Positions 27,901-40,283 of a stretch of DNA of 64,000 nucleotides are shown piece after piece; within the stretch, counting starts at the first letter, position 1; every line of letters starts with the position of its first letter. The position numbers and the translations under genes are program-made. The notes beneath the pieces were generated by a model. It saw nothing but the letters and a program-made list of their open reading frames with translations, made no database searches and was not told where the DNA came from. This DNA comes from Baekduia alba (GTDB lineage: Bacteria; Actinomycetota; Thermoleophilia; Solirubrobacterales; Solirubrobacteraceae): positions 868,001 through 932,000 of the forward strand of contig NZ_CP114013.1 in assembly GCF_028416635.1 (NCBI RefSeq), in the 5' to 3' direction.

Positions 27901-30900
27901 GTGGGTCGTCCGAAGCCCTTCGCCAAGCTGCGCCAGCTCCCCGTGGTCGGCCATGCCGCCGACTGGGGCATGGGTCCGCACGCGGTCTCCAAGAAGACCA
28001 AGGAGGCCGGCGCGCGCATCGCCGGCATGGACGTCTCGGAGTCGGTCTGCCCGTACTGCGCGGTCGGCTGCTCGCAGGTCGTCTACGCGCGGGATGGCGC
28101 GCTGGTCGACATCGAGGGCAACCCGCGCTCGCCGGTCAACCAGGGCACGCTGTGCCCCAAGGGCTCGGCGTCGCGCCAGCTCGTCCAGCAGCCCGGCCGG
28201 CTGACGAAGGTCCTGTACCGCAAGCCGTACGGCACCGAGTTCGAGGAGATCGCGCTCGAGACGGCGATGGACATGATCGCCGAGCGCGTGATCGCCGCCC
28301 GCGAGAACGGCTGGCAGACGCACGACGAGCACGGCAAGCGCGTCGACCGGACGCTCGGCTTCGCGCACCTCGGCGGCGCGACGCTCGACAACGAGGAGAA
28401 CTACCTCATCCGCAAGTCCTTCACCGCGATGGGCGCGGTGCAGATCGAGAACCAGGCCCGCATATGACACTCGAGCACGGTCCCCGGTCTGGGGACCTCG
28501 TTCGGGCGCGGTGGCGCCACCACCTTCCTGCAGGACCTCCAGAACGCGGACTGCGTCCTGATCCAGGGATCCAACATGGCCGAGGCGCATCCGGTGGGGT
28601 TCCGCTGGGTGATGAAGGCGCGCGAGCGCGGCGCCAAGGTCATCCACGTCGACCCGCGCTTCGGGCGCACCAGCGCGTCGGCGACCCAGCACGTCCCGAT
28701 CCGGGCCGGCACCGACATCGCGTTCCTCGGCGGGCTGATCCGCCACGTGCTGGAGACCGAGTCCTACTTCAGGGAGTACGTCCTCCACTACACCAACGCC
28801 TCGACGATCGTCAGCGAGCAGTTCGCCGACACCGAGGACCTCGGCGGCGTCTTCTCCGGCTTCGACCCGGAGACCGGGACCTACGACCGCTCGACGTGGA
28901 TGTACGAGGGCGGCGACGTCGCCTCGGCGGCCGGGATGCGCGAGCACGCCACGCAGGCCTTCGACGAGCACACCGGCGTCGGCCTCAACGAGGGCGCGGT
29001 CCCGCGCGACGAGACGCTCCAGCACGAGCGCTGCGTCTTCCAGATCCTGAAGCGCCACTACGCGCGCTACACGCCCGAGATGGTGGCCGAGATCTGCGGG
29101 ATCTCGCCCGACGAGTTCCACTCCGTCGCCAGGACGCTGATCGAGAACTCGGGCCGCGAGCGGACGACCGCGCTCTGCTACGCGGTCGGCTGGACGCAGC
29201 ACTCGCTCGGCGTCCAGATCATCCGCGCCGGCGCGATCCTGCAGCTGCTGCTCGGCAACATCGGCCGTCCGGGCGGCGGGATCATGGCGCTGCGCGGCCA
29301 CGCGACGATCCAGGGCTCGAGCGACATCCCGACGCTCTACGACCTCCTGCCCGGCTACCTGCCGATGCCGAGCGCGCACGAGGGGGACCTGACCCTCGAC
29401 AGCTACGTCAAGGCCAGCGGCGCGCGCCGCGGCTGGTGGGCGAACTTCGACAAGTACATCATCTCGTTGATGAAGGCCTGGTACGGCGACGCCGCCACGG
29501 CCGAGAACGACTACGGCTTCGCGCACATGCCGAAGATCACCGGCAACCACGCGCACTTCCCGACGATGATGCGCGCGGTCGACGGCGGCCTGGACGGCAT
29601 GTTCGTCATGGGGCAGAACCCGGCGATCGGCTCGCAGAACGGCGGGCTGATGCGACGCGGCCTCGCCAACATGAAGTGGTTGGTCGTGCGCGACTTCGCC
29701 GAGATCGAGACCGCGACGTTCTGGCGCGACGCGCCCGAGGTCCAGGCCGGCGAGGTCACGCCCGAGGACATCGGGACCGAGGTCTTCCTGATGCCCGCCG
29801 CGTCGCACGTCGAGAAGGAGGGGTCCTTCACCCAGACCCAGCGGATGGTGCAGTGGCGCGACAAGGCGCTCGACCCACCCGAGGACGCGCGCAGCGAGCT
29901 GTGGTTCATGCACCACCTGACCAAGCGCGTGATGCGCCACTACGCGGGCTCGACCGACGCGAAGGACTGGCCCTTGGTCAACCTCCACTGGCCCTACGAG
30001 GAGCACGGGCCGGAGCGCGAGCCGCACGCCGAGGACGTCCTGCGCGAGATCAACGGCTACCACGTCGACGACGGCGCGCCGATGGGCGGTTTCGCGCAGC
30101 TCAAGAACGACGGGTCGACCGCGTGCGGCTGCTGGATCTACAGCGGGGTCATGGCCGAGGGCGTCAACCAGGCGCGGCGGCGCGAGCCCGGCGACATCGA
30201 CGACCCCGACGGCGGCTGGGTCTCGCCCGAGTGGGGCTGGGTCTGGCCGGCGAACCGCCGCATGCTCTACAACCGCGCGTCGGCCGATCCGGACGGCAAG
30301 CCGTGGAGCGAGCGCAAGAAGTACATCTGGTGGGACGAGGACGAGGGCAAGTGGACCGGCTACGACGTTCCGGACTTCCCGGTCGACAAGCCGCCGTCCT
30401 ACCGCGCCGACGACGACGCCGAGGGCATGGACGCGATCGACGGCGACAACCCCTTCATCATGATGGGCGACGGCCGCGCCTGGCTGTACACCCCGTCGGG
30501 CCTGCTCGACGGGCCGATGCCCACGCACTACGAGCCGGTCGAGTCGCCGGTGCGCAACCTGTTGTACCCCGCCTTGGGCGCCAACCCGGTGGCGATCCGC
30601 TGGGACCGGCCCGACAACCCCATCAACCCGTCCGACGACCCGCGCTTCCCGCACGTCCTCACGACCTTCCGGCTGACCGAGCACCACACCGTCGGCGGGA
30701 TGAGCCGCAACCTGCCGTGGCTGAACGAGCTGCAGCCGGAGATGTTCGCCGAGGTCGACCCGATCCTGGCCGCGCGCGCGGGCATCGAGGACGGCGGCTG
30801 GCTGGTGCTGAGCACCGCGCGCGGCGAGATCGAGGCCCGCGCCAAGGTGACCGAGCGGATGCGGCCGCTGCGCATCGCCGGGCGGACGATCCACCAGGTC

Positions 30901-31146
30901 GCGATCCCGTGGCACTGGGGCTACAGCGGCCTGAGCAAGGGCGACAGCGCCAACGACCTGCTGCACCTGTCGGGCGACCCGAACGTGAACATCGAGACGA
31001 CCAAGGCGCTGACGTGCGACGTGCGCGCCGGCCGTCGCCCGACGCCGCAGACCTCGGGCGTCATCCTCACGCGCCGCGGGGAGTCCCGCGTCGACCGCGA
31101 GCACCCCGCCGAGCAGCCCAAGCTCAACGAGTCCCACGAGGCCTGA
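27901..31146 (+). CDS. fdhA: formate dehydrogenase catalytic subunit, selenoprotein (UGA = Sec189)
   Basis: A molybdopterin-dependent formate dehydrogenase of 1081 residues if the TGA at 28465-28467 is read as selenocysteine. The [4Fe-4S] ligands are C50, C53, C57 and C85 (CPYCAVGC ... LCPKG). The active site reads QARI-Sec-HSSTVPGLGTSFGRG, as in FDH-N/FDH-O, and is followed by NMAEAHPVGFRW. A SECIS hairpin lies just past the TGA, and the frame continues intact for 2.7 kb. It oxidises formate to CO2 using a bis-MGD cofactor. The start is GTG at 27901; an in-frame stop lies 12 bases upstream. No twin-arginine export signal is present, unlike FdnG. It heads an operon with the Fe-S subunit (2 bases apart) and the NrfD-like subunit. 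Confidence 0.93.
28465..28500 (+). promoter_or_regulatory. SECIS element directing selenocysteine insertion
   Basis: The UGA at 28465-28467 is followed after 11 bases by a perfect 7-bp stem GGTCCCC (28479-28485) and GGGGACC (28491-28497) with loop GGTCT. The bacterial fdhF SECIS loop is AGGUCU at a very similar distance, and the G-U of that loop contacts SelB. The hairpin is also coding sequence (VPGLGT), as in other bacterial selenoprotein genes. Confidence 0.92.
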
Positions 31147-31148
31147 TC

Positions 31149-32192
31149 ATGCCGATGCCCTCCCTGCCCGCCCACGCCGCGCCGTCCGAGATCTCGGTGC
31201 GCCGGGACGGCGCCCAGAAGATGGGGTTCTTCACCGACACGTCGGTGTGCATCGGCTGCAAGGCGTGCGAGGTCGCGTGCAAGCAGTGGAACGACCTGCC
31301 GTCCGACGGCGCGGAGTTCCGGCGCGGCGGCTCCTACGACCACACGGCGTCGCTGAGCGCCGAGACCTGGCGCCACGTGCGCTTCGTCGAGCTGCTCGAG
31401 CCGTCGCCGCCCGGACTTCATGAAGATGTCGACCTGGTGGCCTTGGCCGAGGAGCGCGCGGGGGCCGAGGCGCCGGTCGACGTCGCGGCCGCCGTCGCCG
31501 ACATGGACCGCTGGGTGTTCATGTCCGACGTGTGCAAGCACTGCACCAACGCCGGGTGCATGGACGCGTGCCCGACGGGGGCGCTGATCCGGACGGAGTT
31601 CGAGACGGTGATCGTCCAGCAGGACGTGTGCAACGGCTGCGGCTACTGCATCCCGTCGTGCCCGTTCGGCGTGATCGACCGAGACCATGTGGATGGTCGC
31701 GCCGCCAAGTGCACGCTCTGCTACGACCGCCTCGAGGACGGGCTGGAGCCGGCGTGCGCGAAGGCGTGCCCGACCGACTCGATCCAGTTCGGGCCCTACG
31801 ACGAGCTCGTCGACCTCGCCAGCCGCCGCGTCGCCAAGCTGCACGAGCGCGGGGTCGACGGCGCCTACTTGTACGGGGCCGGCGACGCCGACGACGAGCA
31901 GATCGCCGGCGGCCTCGGCGCGTTCTTCCTGCTGACCGAGCCGCCCGAGCGCTTCGGCCTGCCGGCCACCGCCGACTCGCCGATCCAGGACAGCGTCGTG
32001 CCCGCCACGCTCGCGGCGGTGGGCGCCGGCCTGGCCGCCGCGGCCGCCGTCGCGGTGGCGTTCAAGCTGCCGCCCCGCAAGGGGCGCGGCGGCGGCGCGC
32101 TGACCGCGATCGCCGCGGCGGCCGGCGTCTTCGAGCTCGCGCGCGACACGCGCGAGCGGCGGCTGCGCAAGCGGGATCGAGGTGGCGCATGA
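31149..32192 (+). CDS. fdhB: formate dehydrogenase iron-sulfur subunit
   Basis: A 347-residue electron-transfer subunit with four cysteine clusters for [4Fe-4S] centres: CIGCKACEVACKQW near residue 36, CKHCTNAGCMDACP, CNGCGYCIPSCPFG and CTLCYDRLEDGLEPACAKACP. It matches the FdnH/FdoH/HybA ferredoxin-like group. A membrane helix near residue 280 (VPATLAAVGAGLAAAAAVAV) anchors it. It should pass electrons from FdhA to the membrane partner. It starts 2 bases after fdhA and overlaps the next gene by 4 bases (ATGA). Confidence 0.92.
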   Translation: MPMPSLPAHAAPSEISVRRDGAQKMGFFTDTSVCIGCKACEVACKQWNDLPSDGAEFRRGGSYDHTASLSAETWRHVRFVELLEPSPPGLHEDVDLVALAEERAGAEAPVDVAAAVADMDRWVFMSDVCKHCTNAGCMDACPTGALIRTEFETVIVQQDVCNGCGYCIPSCPFGVIDRDHVDGRAAKCTLCYDRLEDGLEPACAKACPTDSIQFGPYDELVDLASRRVAKLHERGVDGAYLYGAGDADDEQIAGGLGAFFLLTEPPERFGLPATADSPIQDSVVPATLAAVGAGLAAAAAVAVAFKLPPRKGRGGGALTAIAAAAGVFELARDTRERRLRKRDRGGA

Positions 32193-33445
32193 CCGAGGGC
32201 GAGGACCGGCCCCACCCCGAGCCGGAGGTGCGCGCCGGGCACGCAGCGGCGGCCGACGAGGCCAAGGCGCAGGAGGCGGCGCGCGCCGACCGCGCGCGGG
32301 CGCCGCGGCGCGACATGACGGCGGCGCTCGGCGTCCCCGGTGGCCCGGCCAGCTGGCGGCGGGCGGTGCCGGGCGCGCAGGTCGCGCTGGCCGCGCGCGA
32401 CTGGGCCGACGCCCGCTGGTCGAGCATCTTCCGGCGCGGCACCGCCTACGCCGTCGACGAGGCGGTCGACCCGGAGCTGATCGCCGCGGCCAACCGGCGA
32501 GGGCGCGGCGGCGAGCCGCCCGAGCTGGTCCAGGGGCCGATGATGAAGGCGCCCGTCTGGACCTGGGAGGTGCCGCTGTACTTCTGGTTCGGCGGGATGG
32601 CAGCGGGCGCGTCGTTCGTGTCGCTGGCCTGCGACGTCGCCGGCGACGAGCGCTCGGCCAGGATCGCGCGGCGCGTCGCGCTCGGCGCGCTGGTGCCGTC
32701 GCCGCCGCTGTTGATCATGGACCTGGGGCGGCCCGAGCGGTTCTACAACATGTTGCGGATCTTCAAGCCGCGCTCGCCGATGTCGATGGGGTCGTGGTGC
32801 CTGACGCTCTTCGGCGGGCTGGGCAGCGCCGCGGTCGGCGCGGACCTGATCGGCCGCCACCGCGAGGCGAAGGCGCTCGGCGCGGCCAACGCCGTGGTCG
32901 GCGGGTACTTGGGGTCCTACACCGGTGTCCTGCTCGCCTCCACGGCGGTGCCGCTGTGGGCCCGCAGCCGGTTGACGCTCGGGCCGATCTTCGTCTCGAC
33001 CGCGACGCTCACCGGCGCGGCAGCCACGCGGCTCGTGCTCGTCGCCACCGGCCTGCCGCCCGGGCACCCGACGCGCGAGGCGCTGGGGCGCGTGGAGAGC
33101 GGCGCCATGGCCGCCGAGCTCGTGCTGTCGGAGATCAACCACCATCACCTGGGCCGGCTCGCGCACGCGCTGGAGGAAGGCGCGGGCGCGCGCTGGTACG
33201 CGCGCGCCAAGTGGCTCGCGCGCGGCGGGCTGGCGCTGCGCTACGCCCGCCGGCACCTCGGCCCGTGGACCGACCACGCCGCCAGCGTCGCGTTCATGGG
33301 CGCCGCCCTGTGCTTCCGCTACGCCTGGGTCCGGGCCGGCCGCAGCTCGGCCGCCGACGACGAGGCCGTCGCGCGGACGGCGCGGCAGCGGGCCACGCGA
33401 TACGAGCGAGCTTCTGAGGAGATCCGGGTAACCCACCACCGCTGA
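32189..33445 (+). CDS. NrfD-like membrane subunit of formate dehydrogenase
   Basis: A 418-residue integral membrane protein of the NrfD/PsrC family. About 110 residues of charged and Ala-rich N terminus precede the membrane part. Then come WEVPLYFWFGGMAAGASFVS (helix 1), RARIALGALVPSPPLLIMDL-like helix 2 with the conserved DLGRPERFYNMLRIFKPRSP motif, and several further helices. NrfD proteins pass electrons to or from quinone. The fdh complex would therefore connect formate oxidation to the quinone pool. The cytochrome b-type FdnI subunit of E. coli is replaced here by an NrfD type. Confidence 0.9.
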   Translation: MTEGEDRPHPEPEVRAGHAAAADEAKAQEAARADRARAPRRDMTAALGVPGGPASWRRAVPGAQVALAARDWADARWSSIFRRGTAYAVDEAVDPELIAAANRRGRGGEPPELVQGPMMKAPVWTWEVPLYFWFGGMAAGASFVSLACDVAGDERSARIARRVALGALVPSPPLLIMDLGRPERFYNMLRIFKPRSPMSMGSWCLTLFGGLGSAAVGADLIGRHREAKALGAANAVVGGYLGSYTGVLLASTAVPLWARSRLTLGPIFVSTATLTGAAATRLVLVATGLPPGHPTREALGRVESGAMAAELVLSEINHHHLGRLAHALEEGAGARWYARAKWLARGGLALRYARRHLGPWTDHAASVAFMGAALCFRYAWVRAGRSSAADDEAVARTARQRATRYERASEEIRVTHHR

Positions 33446-33464
33446 GCTCCGCAGCCACGGTCAG

Positions 33465-33840
33465 GAGAGCCGTTGTCCTACAAGAAGTCGCCTTCGCGGG
33501 CCTGCTCGCGGTCGTGACGTCGGCGGGGGATGGACCCCAAGATCTGGGGCGGCGTGCCGACGTCGGTCACCGGCGGGGTGTTCACGCTCGGCCTACTGCT
33601 GGCTCGTCGTCGCCGGCGCGGAGCTGCTGACCGGCTCCTGGCCAAGGAGACCGGCGTCATCACCGCCCCGGCGCCGCTGGCGCGGCTGGGCGCGACCGCG
33701 ACCGCCAAGGGCGTGACCGAGACCGCCTGGCAGATCTTCCTGCGCGCGGTCGGCTGGAACGCGAAGATCCAGTTCTTGATCGCGTCGCCCCAGTCGATGC
33801 CCGGTATCGGGCGCATGTCCTTCAACTGCCGCGGCGAGCT
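33465..33840 (+). pseudogene. decayed formate/nitrite transporter (FNT) gene
   Basis: Pieces of an FNT channel can be recognised in different reading frames. EVAFAGLLAVVTSAGD (from about 33480) looks like helix 1. GVPTSVTGGVFTLGL (from 33551) is the start of helix 2. Then VVAGAELLTGSW (33606-33641, another frame) is the family signature just before the first loop. Later AKGVTETAWQIFLRAVGWN (about 33709-33765) resembles the middle helix. At least two frameshifts, loss of the C-terminal half and no plausible start make it non-functional. It lies directly after the fdh operon, where a formate channel would be expected. Confidence 0.6.
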
Positions 33841-35172
33841 ACGTCAGCGCGGCACGTAGGACGGCGGCCGCCGTCGGGACCTCGTCCGCGGTGAGCGTGC
33901 GCGGGTCCAGGACGACGCGGCCGTCGGCGATGCGCGCCAGCAGCGGCGGTTCGGCGGCGCGGAGGCGCGCCGCCAGCGCGTCGGGGTCCGGCGTGGCGAC
34001 CGCGGCGGCGGGGCCGGGAAGCTCGAGGAGTGGCAGCGCGCCGCCCCCGACCCGGGCGACGGCGTCGACGACCTCGGCGTGATCGCCGCCGGCGTCGGCG
34101 AGCTGCTGGGCGTGCGCGCGAAGGGTGGCGTCGTCGGCGCCGAGCATCGCCAGGACCGGGATCTCGCGGCGGGCGCGCTCGGGGTCGCGGTACAGCGCGA
34201 GCGTCGCGGCCAGGGCGGCCATCGGGAGGCGGCCGACGCGCAGGGCGCGGGCGAGCGGATGGCGGCGGCAGGCGGCGATCGCGTCGCGGGTGCCGACGAG
34301 GATCCCGGCCTGCGGGCCGCCGAGCAGCTTGTCGCCGCTGAAGCAGACCAGCGCCGCGCCGGCGGCGACCGAGGCGCGCACCGGCGGCTCGTCGGCGACG
34401 AGGTCGTCGAGGCCGCCGGCCAGGACGCCGGAGCCGAGGTCGTCGACGACCGGCGCGCGCAGGCTCGTGAGCTGCGCGATCGCCACGTCCTCCACGAAGC
34501 CGAGCGTGCGGAAGTTCGAGGGGTGGACGCGCAGGATGACCGCGGAGCGGCCGGTCGCGGCGGCGGTGGCGAGCGCCGCCGCGTAGTCGTCGAGGCGCGT
34601 GCGGTTGGTGGTGCCGACCTCGACGAGCCGCGCGCCGGCCTGCGCCACGACGTCCGGGATCCGGAAGCCGCCGCCGATCTCGACGAGCTGGCCGCGGGAG
34701 ACGATGACCGAGGCACCCGGGCCGGCGAGCGCGGCGGCGGCCAGGAGCGTGGCGGCGGCGCCGTTGTTGACGACGAGGGCGTCCTCTGCGCCGGTGAGCT
34801 CGGCGAGCAGGGCCGCCACGTGAGCGTCACGGGCGCCGCGGCGGCCGGTCGTGAGGTCGAGCTCGAGGTTCACGTAGCCGCGCGCCGCGTCGGCGGCGGC
34901 CTCGGCGGCGGCCTCGGCGAGCGGCGCCCGGCCCAGGTTGGTGTGGATGATGACGCCGGTCGCATTGAGGACGCGGCGCAGCGACGGCCGCAGGTGCTCG
35001 CGCGCGCGGGCGACGAGGTCCGGGTCGCCGGCCGCGCCGCCCAGGATCTCCGCCCGCCGCTGCGCGATGGCGGCGCGGGCGGCCGCGACCGCCTCGGCCG
35101 GCGACGCATCGGCCGCCAGCGCGGCGGCGAGCCGGTCGACGGCCGGCAGGGCTCGGAGCGCATCGGGATCGG

Positions 35173-35176
<4 letters not shown>
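33839..35176 (-). CDS. selA: L-seryl-tRNA(Sec) selenium transferase
   Basis: A 445-residue PLP enzyme that converts Ser-tRNA(Sec) to Sec-tRNA(Sec) using selenophosphate. Family landmarks are LRRVLNATGVIIHTNLGRAP (residues 66-85), VNLELDLTTGRRG, NNGAAATLLA, the metal-free GQLVEIGGGFRIPDV and the PLP lysine K283 in CFSGDKLLGGPQAG. The start at 35176 overlaps the selB stop (ATGA), so selB and selA are translationally coupled. It ends convergent with the decayed formate channel gene. Confidence 0.96.
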
Positions 35177-36681
<1,505 letters not shown>

Positions 36682-39159: not shown

Positions 39160-39251
39160 CGGAGCGGCGAAGGAGTCGAACCTTCCCGGCGCGTTTGCGG
39201 CGCCGCCAACGGCTTTGAAGGCCGTTCGGGGCACCGGCCCCGGGCCGCTCC
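39160..39251 (-). tRNA. selC: tRNA-Sec (anticodon TCA)
   Basis: Read on the minus strand, an 8-bp acceptor GGAGCGGC pairs with GCCGCTCC, followed by discriminator G at 39160. A six-bp D stem CGGGGC/GCCCCG with a 4-base loop, an anticodon arm ACGGC-CTTCAAA-GCCGT giving UCA, a long variable arm (GGCGGCGCC to GGCGCG region) and a 5-bp T arm GAAGG-TTCGACT-CCTTC are all present. The 8-bp acceptor and extended D stem are specific to tRNA-Sec. CCA is not encoded. It lies 6 bases after the selD stop and is probably processed from the selD transcript. Confidence 0.95.
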
Positions 39252-39257
39252 ATGGAA

Positions 39258-40283
39258 CTACCGGACGGTGATGGTGCCAGGCGTGCCGTCGAGGAGGCGG
39301 CCGACGACGATGCCCGGGACCTCGGCGGCGCGCGCGGCCGGCAAGGCCACCAACAGACCGCCGGACGTCGTCGCGTCGGTGATCAGGCGCGCGCGCCAGG
39401 GCTCGACGCCAGCTCCGACGGTCGAGAACGTCGCCGCGTACTCGGCGTTGCGCGCGCTCCCGCCCGACACCGCGCCGTCGGCGCGCAGGAGCGCCTCGAC
39501 GCCGTCGATCGCCGGGACCGCCGCCGCGTCGACCTCCGCCGCCAGGCCGCTCTCCCGCGCGACGTTGTGCAGGTGCCCCAACAACCCGAAGCCGGTGACG
39601 TCGGTCATCGCGTGCGCGCCCGCGGCCAGGGCCGCCTCCGACGCGCGCGCGTTGAGCTCGACCATCACGTCGACCGCCGCCGCGACCAGCTCCGCGCCCG
39701 CCGCGCCGCGCTTGGCCGCCGTGACGATCGCGCCGACGCCGAGCGGCTTGGTCAACACCAGCACGTCGCCGGCCTGGCCGCCCGCGTTGGTCACGATCCG
39801 ATCCGGGTGCACCGTGCCGGTGACCGCGAGCCCGTACTTCGGCTCGTCGTCCTTGATCGAGTGGCCGCCGACGACCGACGCGCCCGCCTGCGCGACGACG
39901 TCGAGCCCGCCGCGCAGGATCGCGGCGAGCACGTCGGGACCGAGCTGCTCGAGCGGGAACGCCACGACGTTCATCGCGGTGATCGGCACGCCGCCCATGG
40001 CGTACACGTCGCTCAGCGCGTTGGCGGCCGCGACGCGACCGAAGTCATAGGGGTCGTCCACCAGCGGCGTGAAGAAGTCGATCGTGTGGACGAGCGCGAG
40101 GTCGTCGGTCAGCCGGTAGACCGCGGCGTCGTCGCCGGTCGGCGTGCCTACCAGCAGGCGCGGGTCGTCCTGCGCGGGCAGCGTTCGGACGATCGGCAGC
40201 AGGTCGGCCGCCGCGAGCTTGCACCCGCAGCCCGCGCCGCCCGACAGCGACGTGAGCGGGACGGCGGCGGGGGAGGAGGCCAT
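39258..40283 (-). CDS. selD: selenide, water dikinase (selenophosphate synthetase)
   Basis: A 341-residue ATP-dependent enzyme that makes selenophosphate for SelA. The N-terminal catalytic residues are C19 and K22 in GAGCGCKLA. The key residue is thus cysteine rather than selenocysteine. TPTGDDAAVYRLTDDLALVH, TIDFFTPLVDDPYDFGRVAA, NALSDVYAMGG, VVGGHSIKDDEPKYGLAVTG and MTDVTGFGLLGH are classic SelD motifs. tRNA-Sec follows immediately, and a rhodanese gene precedes it by 9 bases on the same strand. Confidence 0.96.
   Translation of the reverse strand: MASSPAAVPLTSLSGGAGCGCKLAAADLLPIVRTLPAQDDPRLLVGTPTGDDAAVYRLTDDLALVHTIDFFTPLVDDPYDFGRVAAANALSDVYAMGGVPITAMNVVAFPLEQLGPDVLAAILRGGLDVVAQAGASVVGGHSIKDDEPKYGLAVTGTVHPDRIVTNAGGQAGDVLVLTKPLGVGAIVTAAKRGAAGAELVAAAVDVMVELNARASEAALAAGAHAMTDVTGFGLLGHLHNVARESGLAAEVDAAAVPAIDGVEALLRADGAVSGGSARNAEYAATFSTVGAGVEPWRARLITDATTSGGLLVALPAARAAEVPGIVVGRLLDGTPGTITVR

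What the first reader, a model, noticed from the sequence alone, without database searches (positions are those of the whole stretch)
28465..28500. Compact SECIS with GGTCT loop and a fully paired 7-bp stem
Seen: UGA, 11-base gap, GGTCCCC/GGGGACC stem and GGTCT loop. The E. coli fdhF element has loop AGGUCU at the same distance. The stem here is continuous, without the usual bulged base, and is 100% paired, so SelB binding in this clade may rely mainly on the loop. It is paired with a SelB that is about 110 residues shorter than in E. coli.
Basis: partly seen in the sequence, partly recalled or inferred. Interest (0 to 1): 0.55.

Follow-up and report, generated by a model that had tools for sequence, protein, structure and literature searches.

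The report
Ordinary selenocysteine hairpin, reduced SelB
This is a genuine but ordinary RNA hairpin that tells the ribosome to read a UGA stop as selenocysteine in a formate dehydrogenase gene; the less expected part is its partner protein SelB, which in this bacterial group has lost half of its RNA-side arm although the hairpin has not changed.

Summary
UGA (28465-28467), an 11-nt gap and GGTCCCC/GGTCT/GGGGACC (28479-28497) lie in fdhA, near selA, selB, tRNA-Sec and selD. It is the only such arrangement in the window. In 157 distinct Sec-fdhA copies from several phyla the stem covaries: a pair joining two synonymous positions is standard in 157 of 157, with six pair types. The loop G and U are invariant. 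Twelve Cys homologues lose the loop U (11 of 12) and much of the stem. All four criteria of the published bSECIS model are met, so it is a normal SECIS.

The missing bulge is real: the base matching E. coli U17 is paired in 155 of 157. It is not tied to a short SelB, because the same kind of hairpin occurs with SelB of 493 to 655 residues.

What is unusual is SelB. Its domain IV keeps only winged helices 3 and 4 (Z 17 to Moorella SelB-SECIS structures); a 45-residue stretch, partly a Pro/Ala/Glu-rich linker, stands in for helices 1 and 2. Starred branches force at least three changes between the short form and the rest. Whether recognition rests mainly on the loop cannot be tested here.

The parts
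27901..31146 (+). fdhA, formate dehydrogenase alpha subunit, 1081 residues if read from GTG 27901 through the internal UGA as Sec189 (start codon uncertain)
   Evidence: TGA=U translation; NF041513 formate_DH_Act 1699 bits over cut-off 1400; TIGR01553 963 bits over 814; start candidates
28465..28467 (+). UGA selenocysteine codon, followed by C (UGAC)
   Evidence: aligned to Cys codons in homologues and followed by a peptide matching that after E. coli FdnG U196
28468..28478 (+). 11-nt spacer between UGA and hairpin
   Evidence: same length in E. coli fdhF and fdnG
28479..28485 (+). SECIS 5' arm GGTCCCC; the T at 28481 is the equivalent of E. coli U17, here paired
28486..28490 (+). SECIS apical loop GGTCT; G28487 and T28488 correspond to E. 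coli G23 and U24
   Evidence: G and T each in 157 of 157 close Sec copies
28491..28497 (+). SECIS 3' arm GGGGACC
31149..32192 (+). fdhB-like iron-sulphur subunit
   Evidence: TIGR01582 FDH-beta 173 bits, below its cut-off 334.7
32189..33445 (+). putative membrane subunit of the formate dehydrogenase (assignment by position and recalled resemblance to NrfD-type proteins; no NCBIfam match at E 1e-10)
33839..35176 (-). selA; its ATG overlaps the selB stop (ATGA)
   Evidence: (TIGR00474 460 bits over cut-off 267.9)
35173..36681 (-). selB, 502 aa: domains I-III, a 45-residue stretch (344-388: helix 349-359, then an unstructured Pro/Ala/Glu-rich linker), winged helices 3 and 4 (389-498)
   Evidence: (TIGR00475 selB 311 bits over 242, aligned over residues 7-355)
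39160..39251 (-). selC, tRNA-Sec, anticodon UCA
   Evidence: (RF01852 73.9 bits)
39258..40283 (-). selD, Cys form
   Evidence: sequence ...GAGCGCKL...; TIGR00476 382 bits over 125

Best explanation
The hairpin is a standard bacterial SECIS element inside fdhA. SelB carrying Sec-tRNA-Sec binds it through winged helices 3 and 4, reading the loop G and U on a rigid stem, and this places Sec-tRNA at the UGA 11 nt upstream. The bulge seen in E. coli is absent because the first base of the tenth codon after Sec is a purine (Thr, Ala, Ile or Val) that pairs with the U. SelB of this lineage has lost winged helices 1 and 2, a change that did not alter the hairpin. Shown: the hairpin, its covariation, its decay in Cys copies, the sel gene set, and the SelB architecture (predicted model plus alignment). 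Inferred: binding and recoding, and that the linker works as a tether to the ribosome.
For: Covariation: 7 pairs are 94.4% standard on 59 sequences against 31-56% when slid, and 51 cells change on both sides against 14.0 shuffled; wobble-wobble pair +15/+27 has 157 of 157 standard pairs, Watson-Crick in 143 against a shuffled mean of 50.7 and maximum of 68; wobble-wobble pair +18/+24 is Watson-Crick in 156 of 157, shuffled maximum 141. On a FastTree tree, 9 left-side and 8 right-side changes of pair +18/+24 make 9 pair changes; for +15/+27 19 and 23 make 29. Codon +7 is GGT in 159 and AGT in 38 of 197 sites (near-copies included), although GGT is 19% of nearby Gly codons and 4.6% in this fdhA. 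Cys copies lose the loop U in 11 of 12, and 58% of their stem cells are standard against 30-62% slid. The published bSECIS criteria are met (PMC13188914 passages). In the window's family, 30 genomes with its own, SelB (E under 1e-100, my threshold) is found in 9 of 10 with Sec-fdhA and 3 of 20 without (Fisher p 1.3e-4, not corrected for kinship). SelB C-terminus: Z 17.2, rmsd 1.6, 111 residues to 2uwm 515-633.
Against: No expression, binding or selenium data. The 36-nt and 81-nt folds do not stand out from shuffles (z -1.4 and -1.5). Two covariation measures are weak: pairs with changes on both sides 3 against 2.4 shuffled (183 of 500 as high) and further pair types 15 against 12.2 (14 of 500). 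The Rfam match (SECIS_3, 19.8 bits) is far below its gathering score of 63. Pair 1 is poorly conserved, and the lower stem seen in the window fold is not conserved (38.9% standard against 29-47% slid). The U at +14 and parts of the stem are also fixed by the protein sequence (Val, Gly). The 15 distant Sec copies fit this stem poorly (58% standard). One Sec-fdhA genome, G077, has no SelB match above EF-Tu level, and three SelB genomes lack this fdhA.
Confidence: 0.95

Rival explanations
1. The hairpin has no RNA function: the UGA is a true stop or a sequencing error, and the stem follows from the conserved peptide V-P-G-L-G-T and GC-rich codons.
For: Four of the seven pairs involve first and second codon positions that are largely fixed by the protein, and a GC-rich genome favours C and G at wobble positions.
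Against: The two synonymous-position pairs of the core covary in six and three standard pair types; the Gly codon is always GGT, the rare one in this gene; UGA is present in 172 distinct copies against 12 with Cys; Cys copies lose the hairpin; tRNA-Sec, selA, selB and selD lie in the window.
Confidence: 0.01
2. One reading: the unbulged stem is a special feature co-adapted to the shortened SelB, which therefore reads mainly the loop.
For: Both features occur together in the window; the loop G and U are invariant; the U17 equivalent is paired.
Against: Unbulged stems occur in 20 of 21 named loci carrying both genes, most with SelB of about 590 residues or more, and in several phyla. The bulge state follows the amino acid at codon +10: the two Ser cases of 157 can take the bulged register. 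The deleted part of SelB is not the part aligned to the SECIS-bound fragments.
Confidence: 0.08
3. The short SelB is a degraded or mis-annotated copy and the cell uses another SelB or other factor.
For: One related SelB (L147) is truncated further and lacks most of the last winged helix, so decay or frameshift does occur in the set.
Against: The short form is found in 20 of 67 complete SelB proteins; all 39 aligned SelB proteins keep the GTPase and last winged-helix profiles; the model is confident (mean pLDDT 89.7). The family profile PF09107 has one match in the whole genome.
Confidence: 0.04

Closest known systems
Bacterial SECIS (bSECIS) consensus model, as described in PMC13188914 (passages seen)
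   Same: 5-nt loop, 7-bp stem, loop pattern N1-G-U-N-N2 with N1 and N2 pairable (G-U or A-U), 18 nt from UGA to loop, MFE -15 kcal/mol
   Different: Nothing that breaks the model
E. coli fdhF and fdnG SECIS elements (sequence fetched; U17, G23 and U24 requirements from a PMC8659212 passage)
   Same: 11-nt gap, the U, G and U at positions 17, 23 and 24 counted from the U of UGA, the same loop position; fdnG has loop AGUCU, as in 21 of 157 relatives
   Different: U17 is bulged in E. coli and paired here, so the 3' arm reaches one base further (+30 instead of +29)
Moorella thermoacetica SelB bound to its SECIS (PDB 1wsu, 2uwm, 2ply)
   Same: Winged helices 3 and 4 superpose with the window SelB C-terminus (Z 17, 32-33% identity). 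From recall, not from a call: the Moorella hairpin also has a GGUCU loop on a continuous stem
   Different: Bacterial SelB of this type has four winged helices (passages); the window SelB has two
Rfam RF01989 SECIS_3
   Same: Aligns end to end (1-59) with the UGA in register
   Different: 19.8 bits, below the gathering score of 63

Membership tests
Bacterial SECIS (bSECIS consensus model) | 3-9 nt apical loop and 4-16 bp upper stem | tested here: met
   5-nt loop, 7-bp stem; criterion from PMC13188914 passage
Bacterial SECIS (bSECIS consensus model) | G in the first two loop positions | tested here: met
   Loop GGTCT; second position G in 157 of 157 close Sec copies
Bacterial SECIS (bSECIS consensus model) | 16-37 nt between UGA and apical loop | tested here: met
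   18 nt
Bacterial SECIS (bSECIS consensus model) | MFE at or below -7.5 kcal/mol | tested here: met
   -15.0 for 36 nt
Bacterial SECIS (bSECIS consensus model) | Directs Sec insertion at the UGA through SelB binding | not testable with these tools
   Needs binding and incorporation assays
E. coli fdhF-type SECIS | Bulged U17 in the 5' arm | tested here: not met
   The equivalent T28481 pairs with A28495; paired in 155 of 157 close relatives; requirement from PMC8659212 passage
E. coli fdhF-type SECIS | G23 and U24 in the loop, 11-nt gap | tested here: met
Rfam SECIS_3 (RF01989) | Score at or above the gathering threshold | tested here: not met
   19.8 bits against 63
SelB elongation factor (TIGR00475) | Score at or above the curated cut-off | tested here: met
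   311.4 bits against 242.25, over residues 7-355
SelB elongation factor, canonical architecture | Domain IV made of four winged helices | tested here: not met
   Two winged helices after a low-confidence linker; four-WHD definition from PMC8124441 and PMC5059743 passages
SelB SECIS-binding module (winged helices 3-4) | Fold of the RNA-bound fragments | tested here: met
   Z 17.2 to 2uwm, 17.0 to 1wsu, 13.8 to E. coli 2pjp; phmmer E 4e-9 to 1wsu

The most novel reading that the evidence does not exclude
In the window's order (probably Solirubrobacterales) and, apparently independently, in other lineages of its class, SelB works with a two-winged-helix domain IV joined to domain III by a stretch of about 16-66 residues that is mostly a flexible linker. 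If so, the rigid four-winged-helix arm of E. coli and Moorella SelB is not needed to link the GTPase site to the SECIS, and tethering is enough for recoding at an unchanged 11-nt spacing.
Probability: 0.65. Interest if true: 0.5.

Novelty: new member of a known kind. Interest (0 to 1): 0.3.

Why it matters
The hairpin adds a natural data set (157 distinct close copies plus 12 Cys homologues) showing by synonymous-site covariation what a bacterial SECIS must keep: six core pairs, the loop G and U, and not the E. coli bulge. The reduced SelB, if functional, is a natural minimal version of a multi-part factor and makes the role of winged helices 1 and 2 directly testable in laboratory strains. 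It might also serve as a smaller Sec-insertion factor.

Tried and rejected
Lower stem: the 46-nt fold of the window shows an extra CTCGAGC/GTTCGGG helix. Over 157 relatives it pairs in 38.9% of cells, inside the 29-47% range of slid controls, so I treat it as incidental.

Link of SelB length to bulge loss: tested and rejected.

Other SECIS of this type in the genome: model R1 finds only the fdhA element in G000 (E 1.5e-8); four of seven relatives give one strong element each, and weak matches at E 0.46-0.64 in G178, G107 and G163 were not followed. That search scored only 150 of 4237 first-look candidates in G000, and R1 was built from fdhA copies, so selenoproteins with other SECIS types are not excluded.

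Literature: searches (terms combining SelB, SECIS, winged helix, truncated, bulged, Moorella and the like) listed nothing that I recognised as describing SelB without winged helices 1-2 or this clade's SECIS; search 56 (Thermoleophilia terms with selenocysteine and formate dehydrogenase) likewise. Mostly I saw titles and abstract beginnings, several lists were capped (20 of 32, 15 of 86, 10 of 26), and the library holds only open-licence PMC papers, so this is weak evidence of absence. The Moorella SECIS sequence is from recall only.

Rows dropped or set apart: of 184 distinct 48-mers (172 Sec, 12 Cys) the 15 Sec rows under 55% identity were counted separately and fit the unbulged model much less well (58.1% standard; 9 of 15 pair +14/+28; 5 of 15 can take the E. 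coli-like bulged register). Only part of the matches was fetched; the matches without a stop were all fetched, and of those only G160's closest match (62% identity; the others are at 44% or below). Six of 73 SelB rows were left out (five incomplete, one duplicate). L147, kept among the 20 short ones, lacks most of the last winged helix and is probably a broken or frameshifted copy. One search used 59 of the 66 distinct hairpins listed; seven distant ones were left out, one at 51% (L100) was kept.

Full report
What is there. The UGA lies in a frame of up to 1081 residues that is formate dehydrogenase alpha once UGA is read as Sec. The window also holds an FdhB-like subunit, a putative membrane subunit, selA, selB, tRNA-Sec with anticodon UCA, and a Cys-type selD. 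A UGA followed at 11 nt by a perfect 7-bp stem and 5-nt loop occurs once among 1097 TGA triplets on both strands, against a mean of 0.14 in mononucleotide shuffles. Folding energy is less telling: z is -1.4, -3.0 and -1.5 for 36, 46 and 81 nt.

Relatives. The fdhA fragment was searched in 199 genomes of the class, 396 of the phylum and 198 of the genus of G526, and the whole protein in named GTDB contigs (80 loci kept of 112). From all loci held, 172 distinct 48-nt Sec sites and 12 Cys sites could be placed; 157 of the Sec sites are at least 55% identical in the protein around them. Beside many actinobacterial records, the named ones among the 157 are titled Acidobacteria, Planctomycetales, Geomonas, Ktedonobacter, Binataceae, Gemmatimonadales and others; a Hydrogenophaga and a Burkholderiales record (L100, L101) have the same hairpin but fall among the 15 distant ones. 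Sequences are distinct but not independent. That the window's order is Solirubrobacterales is inferred from the titles of the nearest named fdhA records (L032-L035) and, since fdhA can move between lineages, is not certain.

Structure under selection. Three of the seven pairs join two third codon positions, which the protein fixes least. The central one (+15/+27) is standard in 157 of 157 and Watson-Crick in 143, with C-G, G-C, U-A, A-U, U-G and G-U all seen; shuffling gives 50.7 Watson-Crick on average and 68 at most. The loop-closing one (+18/+24) is Watson-Crick in 156 of 157 as C-G, G-C or U-A, shuffled maximum 141. The outermost one (+12/+30) is standard in only 126 of 157, so the conserved core is six pairs. 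A count on 59 sequences gives 94.4% paired cells against 31-56% when slid, and a covariation score of 0.406 against 0.163 shuffled; two other measures there are weak (pairs changed on both sides 3 against 2.4, further pair types 15 against 12.2). On a FastTree tree built without the hairpin codons, 9 left and 8 right changes of the closing pair make only 9 pair changes, and 19 and 23 of the central pair make 29. RNAalifold, left free, finds the six core pairs and adds a possible G-U or A-U pair across the loop, which is the pattern in the published bSECIS model.

Loop. Loop positions 2 and 3 are G and U in 157 of 157. The U is the wobble base of a Gly or Ser codon that is always GGT or AGT (159 and 38 of 197 sites, near-copies included), although GGT makes up 19% of Gly codons nearby and 4.6% in this fdhA. 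A passage in PMC8659212 names U17, G23 and U24 as the sites that are not free to vary in the E. coli element; counted from UGA these are +14, +20 and +21, all present here at the same distance.

The bulge. In E. coli U17 is unpaired. Here the same U, the middle base of an invariant Val codon, faces a purine, the first base of the Thr, Ala, Ile or Val codon at +10, and pairs in 155 of 157. In the two exceptions (L056, L126) codon +10 is Ser and the E. coli-like bulged register is possible; among the 15 distant Sec copies 9 pair it and 5 can take the bulged register. So bulge or no bulge is set by one base and differs between relatives.

Cys copies as control. In 12 Cys homologues the loop U is kept in 1, and 58% of stem cells are standard, no better than slid controls (30-62%). 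Eight have Val where close Sec copies have Pro at +6 (156 of 157), which suggests that the Pro is imposed by the stem; distant Sec copies mostly have Ala there (10 of 15). L028, from the window's own family, has Cys, keeps the GGTCT loop but, by my count of its printed row, only 3 of 7 pairs, and its genome G160 has no SelB match above EF-Tu level. In a 57-row tree the nine close Cys rows (L258 and L270 are the same gene) may be one clade (support 72/51); the 213-row FastTree needs four changes between Sec and Cys. The number of independent losses is therefore small. This decay supports the SECIS reading rather than refuting it.

SelB. The window SelB has 502 residues and passes the SelB equivalog cut-off. 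Its model has mean pLDDT 89.7; the weak stretches are around residues 31-50, 61-80, 361-390 and the last few. The last 118 residues, modelled apart (mean pLDDT 95.2), superpose on winged helices 3-4 of Moorella SelB bound to SECIS RNA (2uwm Z 17.2, rmsd 1.6, 111 residues, 515-633) and on E. coli 491-607 (2pjp Z 13.8). Sequence comparison agrees: E 4e-9 to 1wsu against 0.1 to 2pjp. The stretch between domain III and winged helix 3 is 45 residues here (a helix at 349-359, then the linker) and 126-186 in 37 full-length relatives; 20 of 67 are short (16-66) and 10 intermediate (81-114), by thresholds that I set. The quick tree needs five changes of the short state, three forced by starred branches, so reduction appears to have happened more than once. 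One short member (L147) is probably broken. A passage in PMC7590224 reports that E. coli winged helices 3/4 alone capture a SECIS-tagged tRNA in cells, so losing 1-2 need not cost RNA binding.

No coupling. Among 21 named loci that carry both a Sec-fdhA and a complete SelB, 20 have the unbulged stem with SelB of about 522 to 655 residues; among 18 same-genome pairs, 17 have it, with SelB down to 493 residues if the broken L147 and the incomplete L151 are set aside. The hairpin therefore did not change with SelB shortening.

Verdict. The element is a normal member of the bSECIS kind. The claim that binding rests mainly on the loop is open. The two-winged-helix SelB is the part worth following.

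Papers: only passages found by term were seen for PMC13188914, PMC8124441, PMC5059743, PMC4342817, PMC8659212, PMC5311926, PMC4513850, PMC1794560, PMC2830990, PMC7590224 and PMC13186709. PMC1794560 passages report that some Cys-containing homologues keep remnant SECIS-like structures, which agrees with L028. A PMC2830990 passage describes an fdnG with an internal UGA beside sel genes in Corynebacterium aurimucosum, a species held here as L069.

Noticed in passing
window 35173-36681 (-), SelB residues 344-388: Winged helices 1-2 of SelB are replaced by a short stretch with a Pro/Ala/Glu-rich linker; similar reductions occur in L152, L153, L199, L207 and L156.
   Followed up: partly
L170, L174, L175, L193, L218, L257, L258, L028: Cys-type FdhA copies carry V-V-G-L where close Sec copies carry V-P-G-L or V-P-S-L; the Pro at Sec+6 seems imposed by the SECIS stem. 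Two genomes (G744, G685) hold both a Cys and a Sec copy.
   Followed up: partly
window 35173-35176: selB stop and selA start overlap by four bases (ATGA), with selB upstream of selA, unlike the selA-selB order in E. coli.
   Followed up: no
window 33460-33868 (+): Between the putative membrane subunit gene and selA lies a stretch with an interrupted frame, possibly a gene remnant.
   Followed up: no
genomes G011, G107, G163: These relatives have SelB but no Sec-type fdhA of this kind, so they may use other selenoproteins; G077 shows the reverse.
   Followed up: no
L147: A SelB whose last winged helix is mostly missing, probably a frameshift or decay.
   Followed up: no
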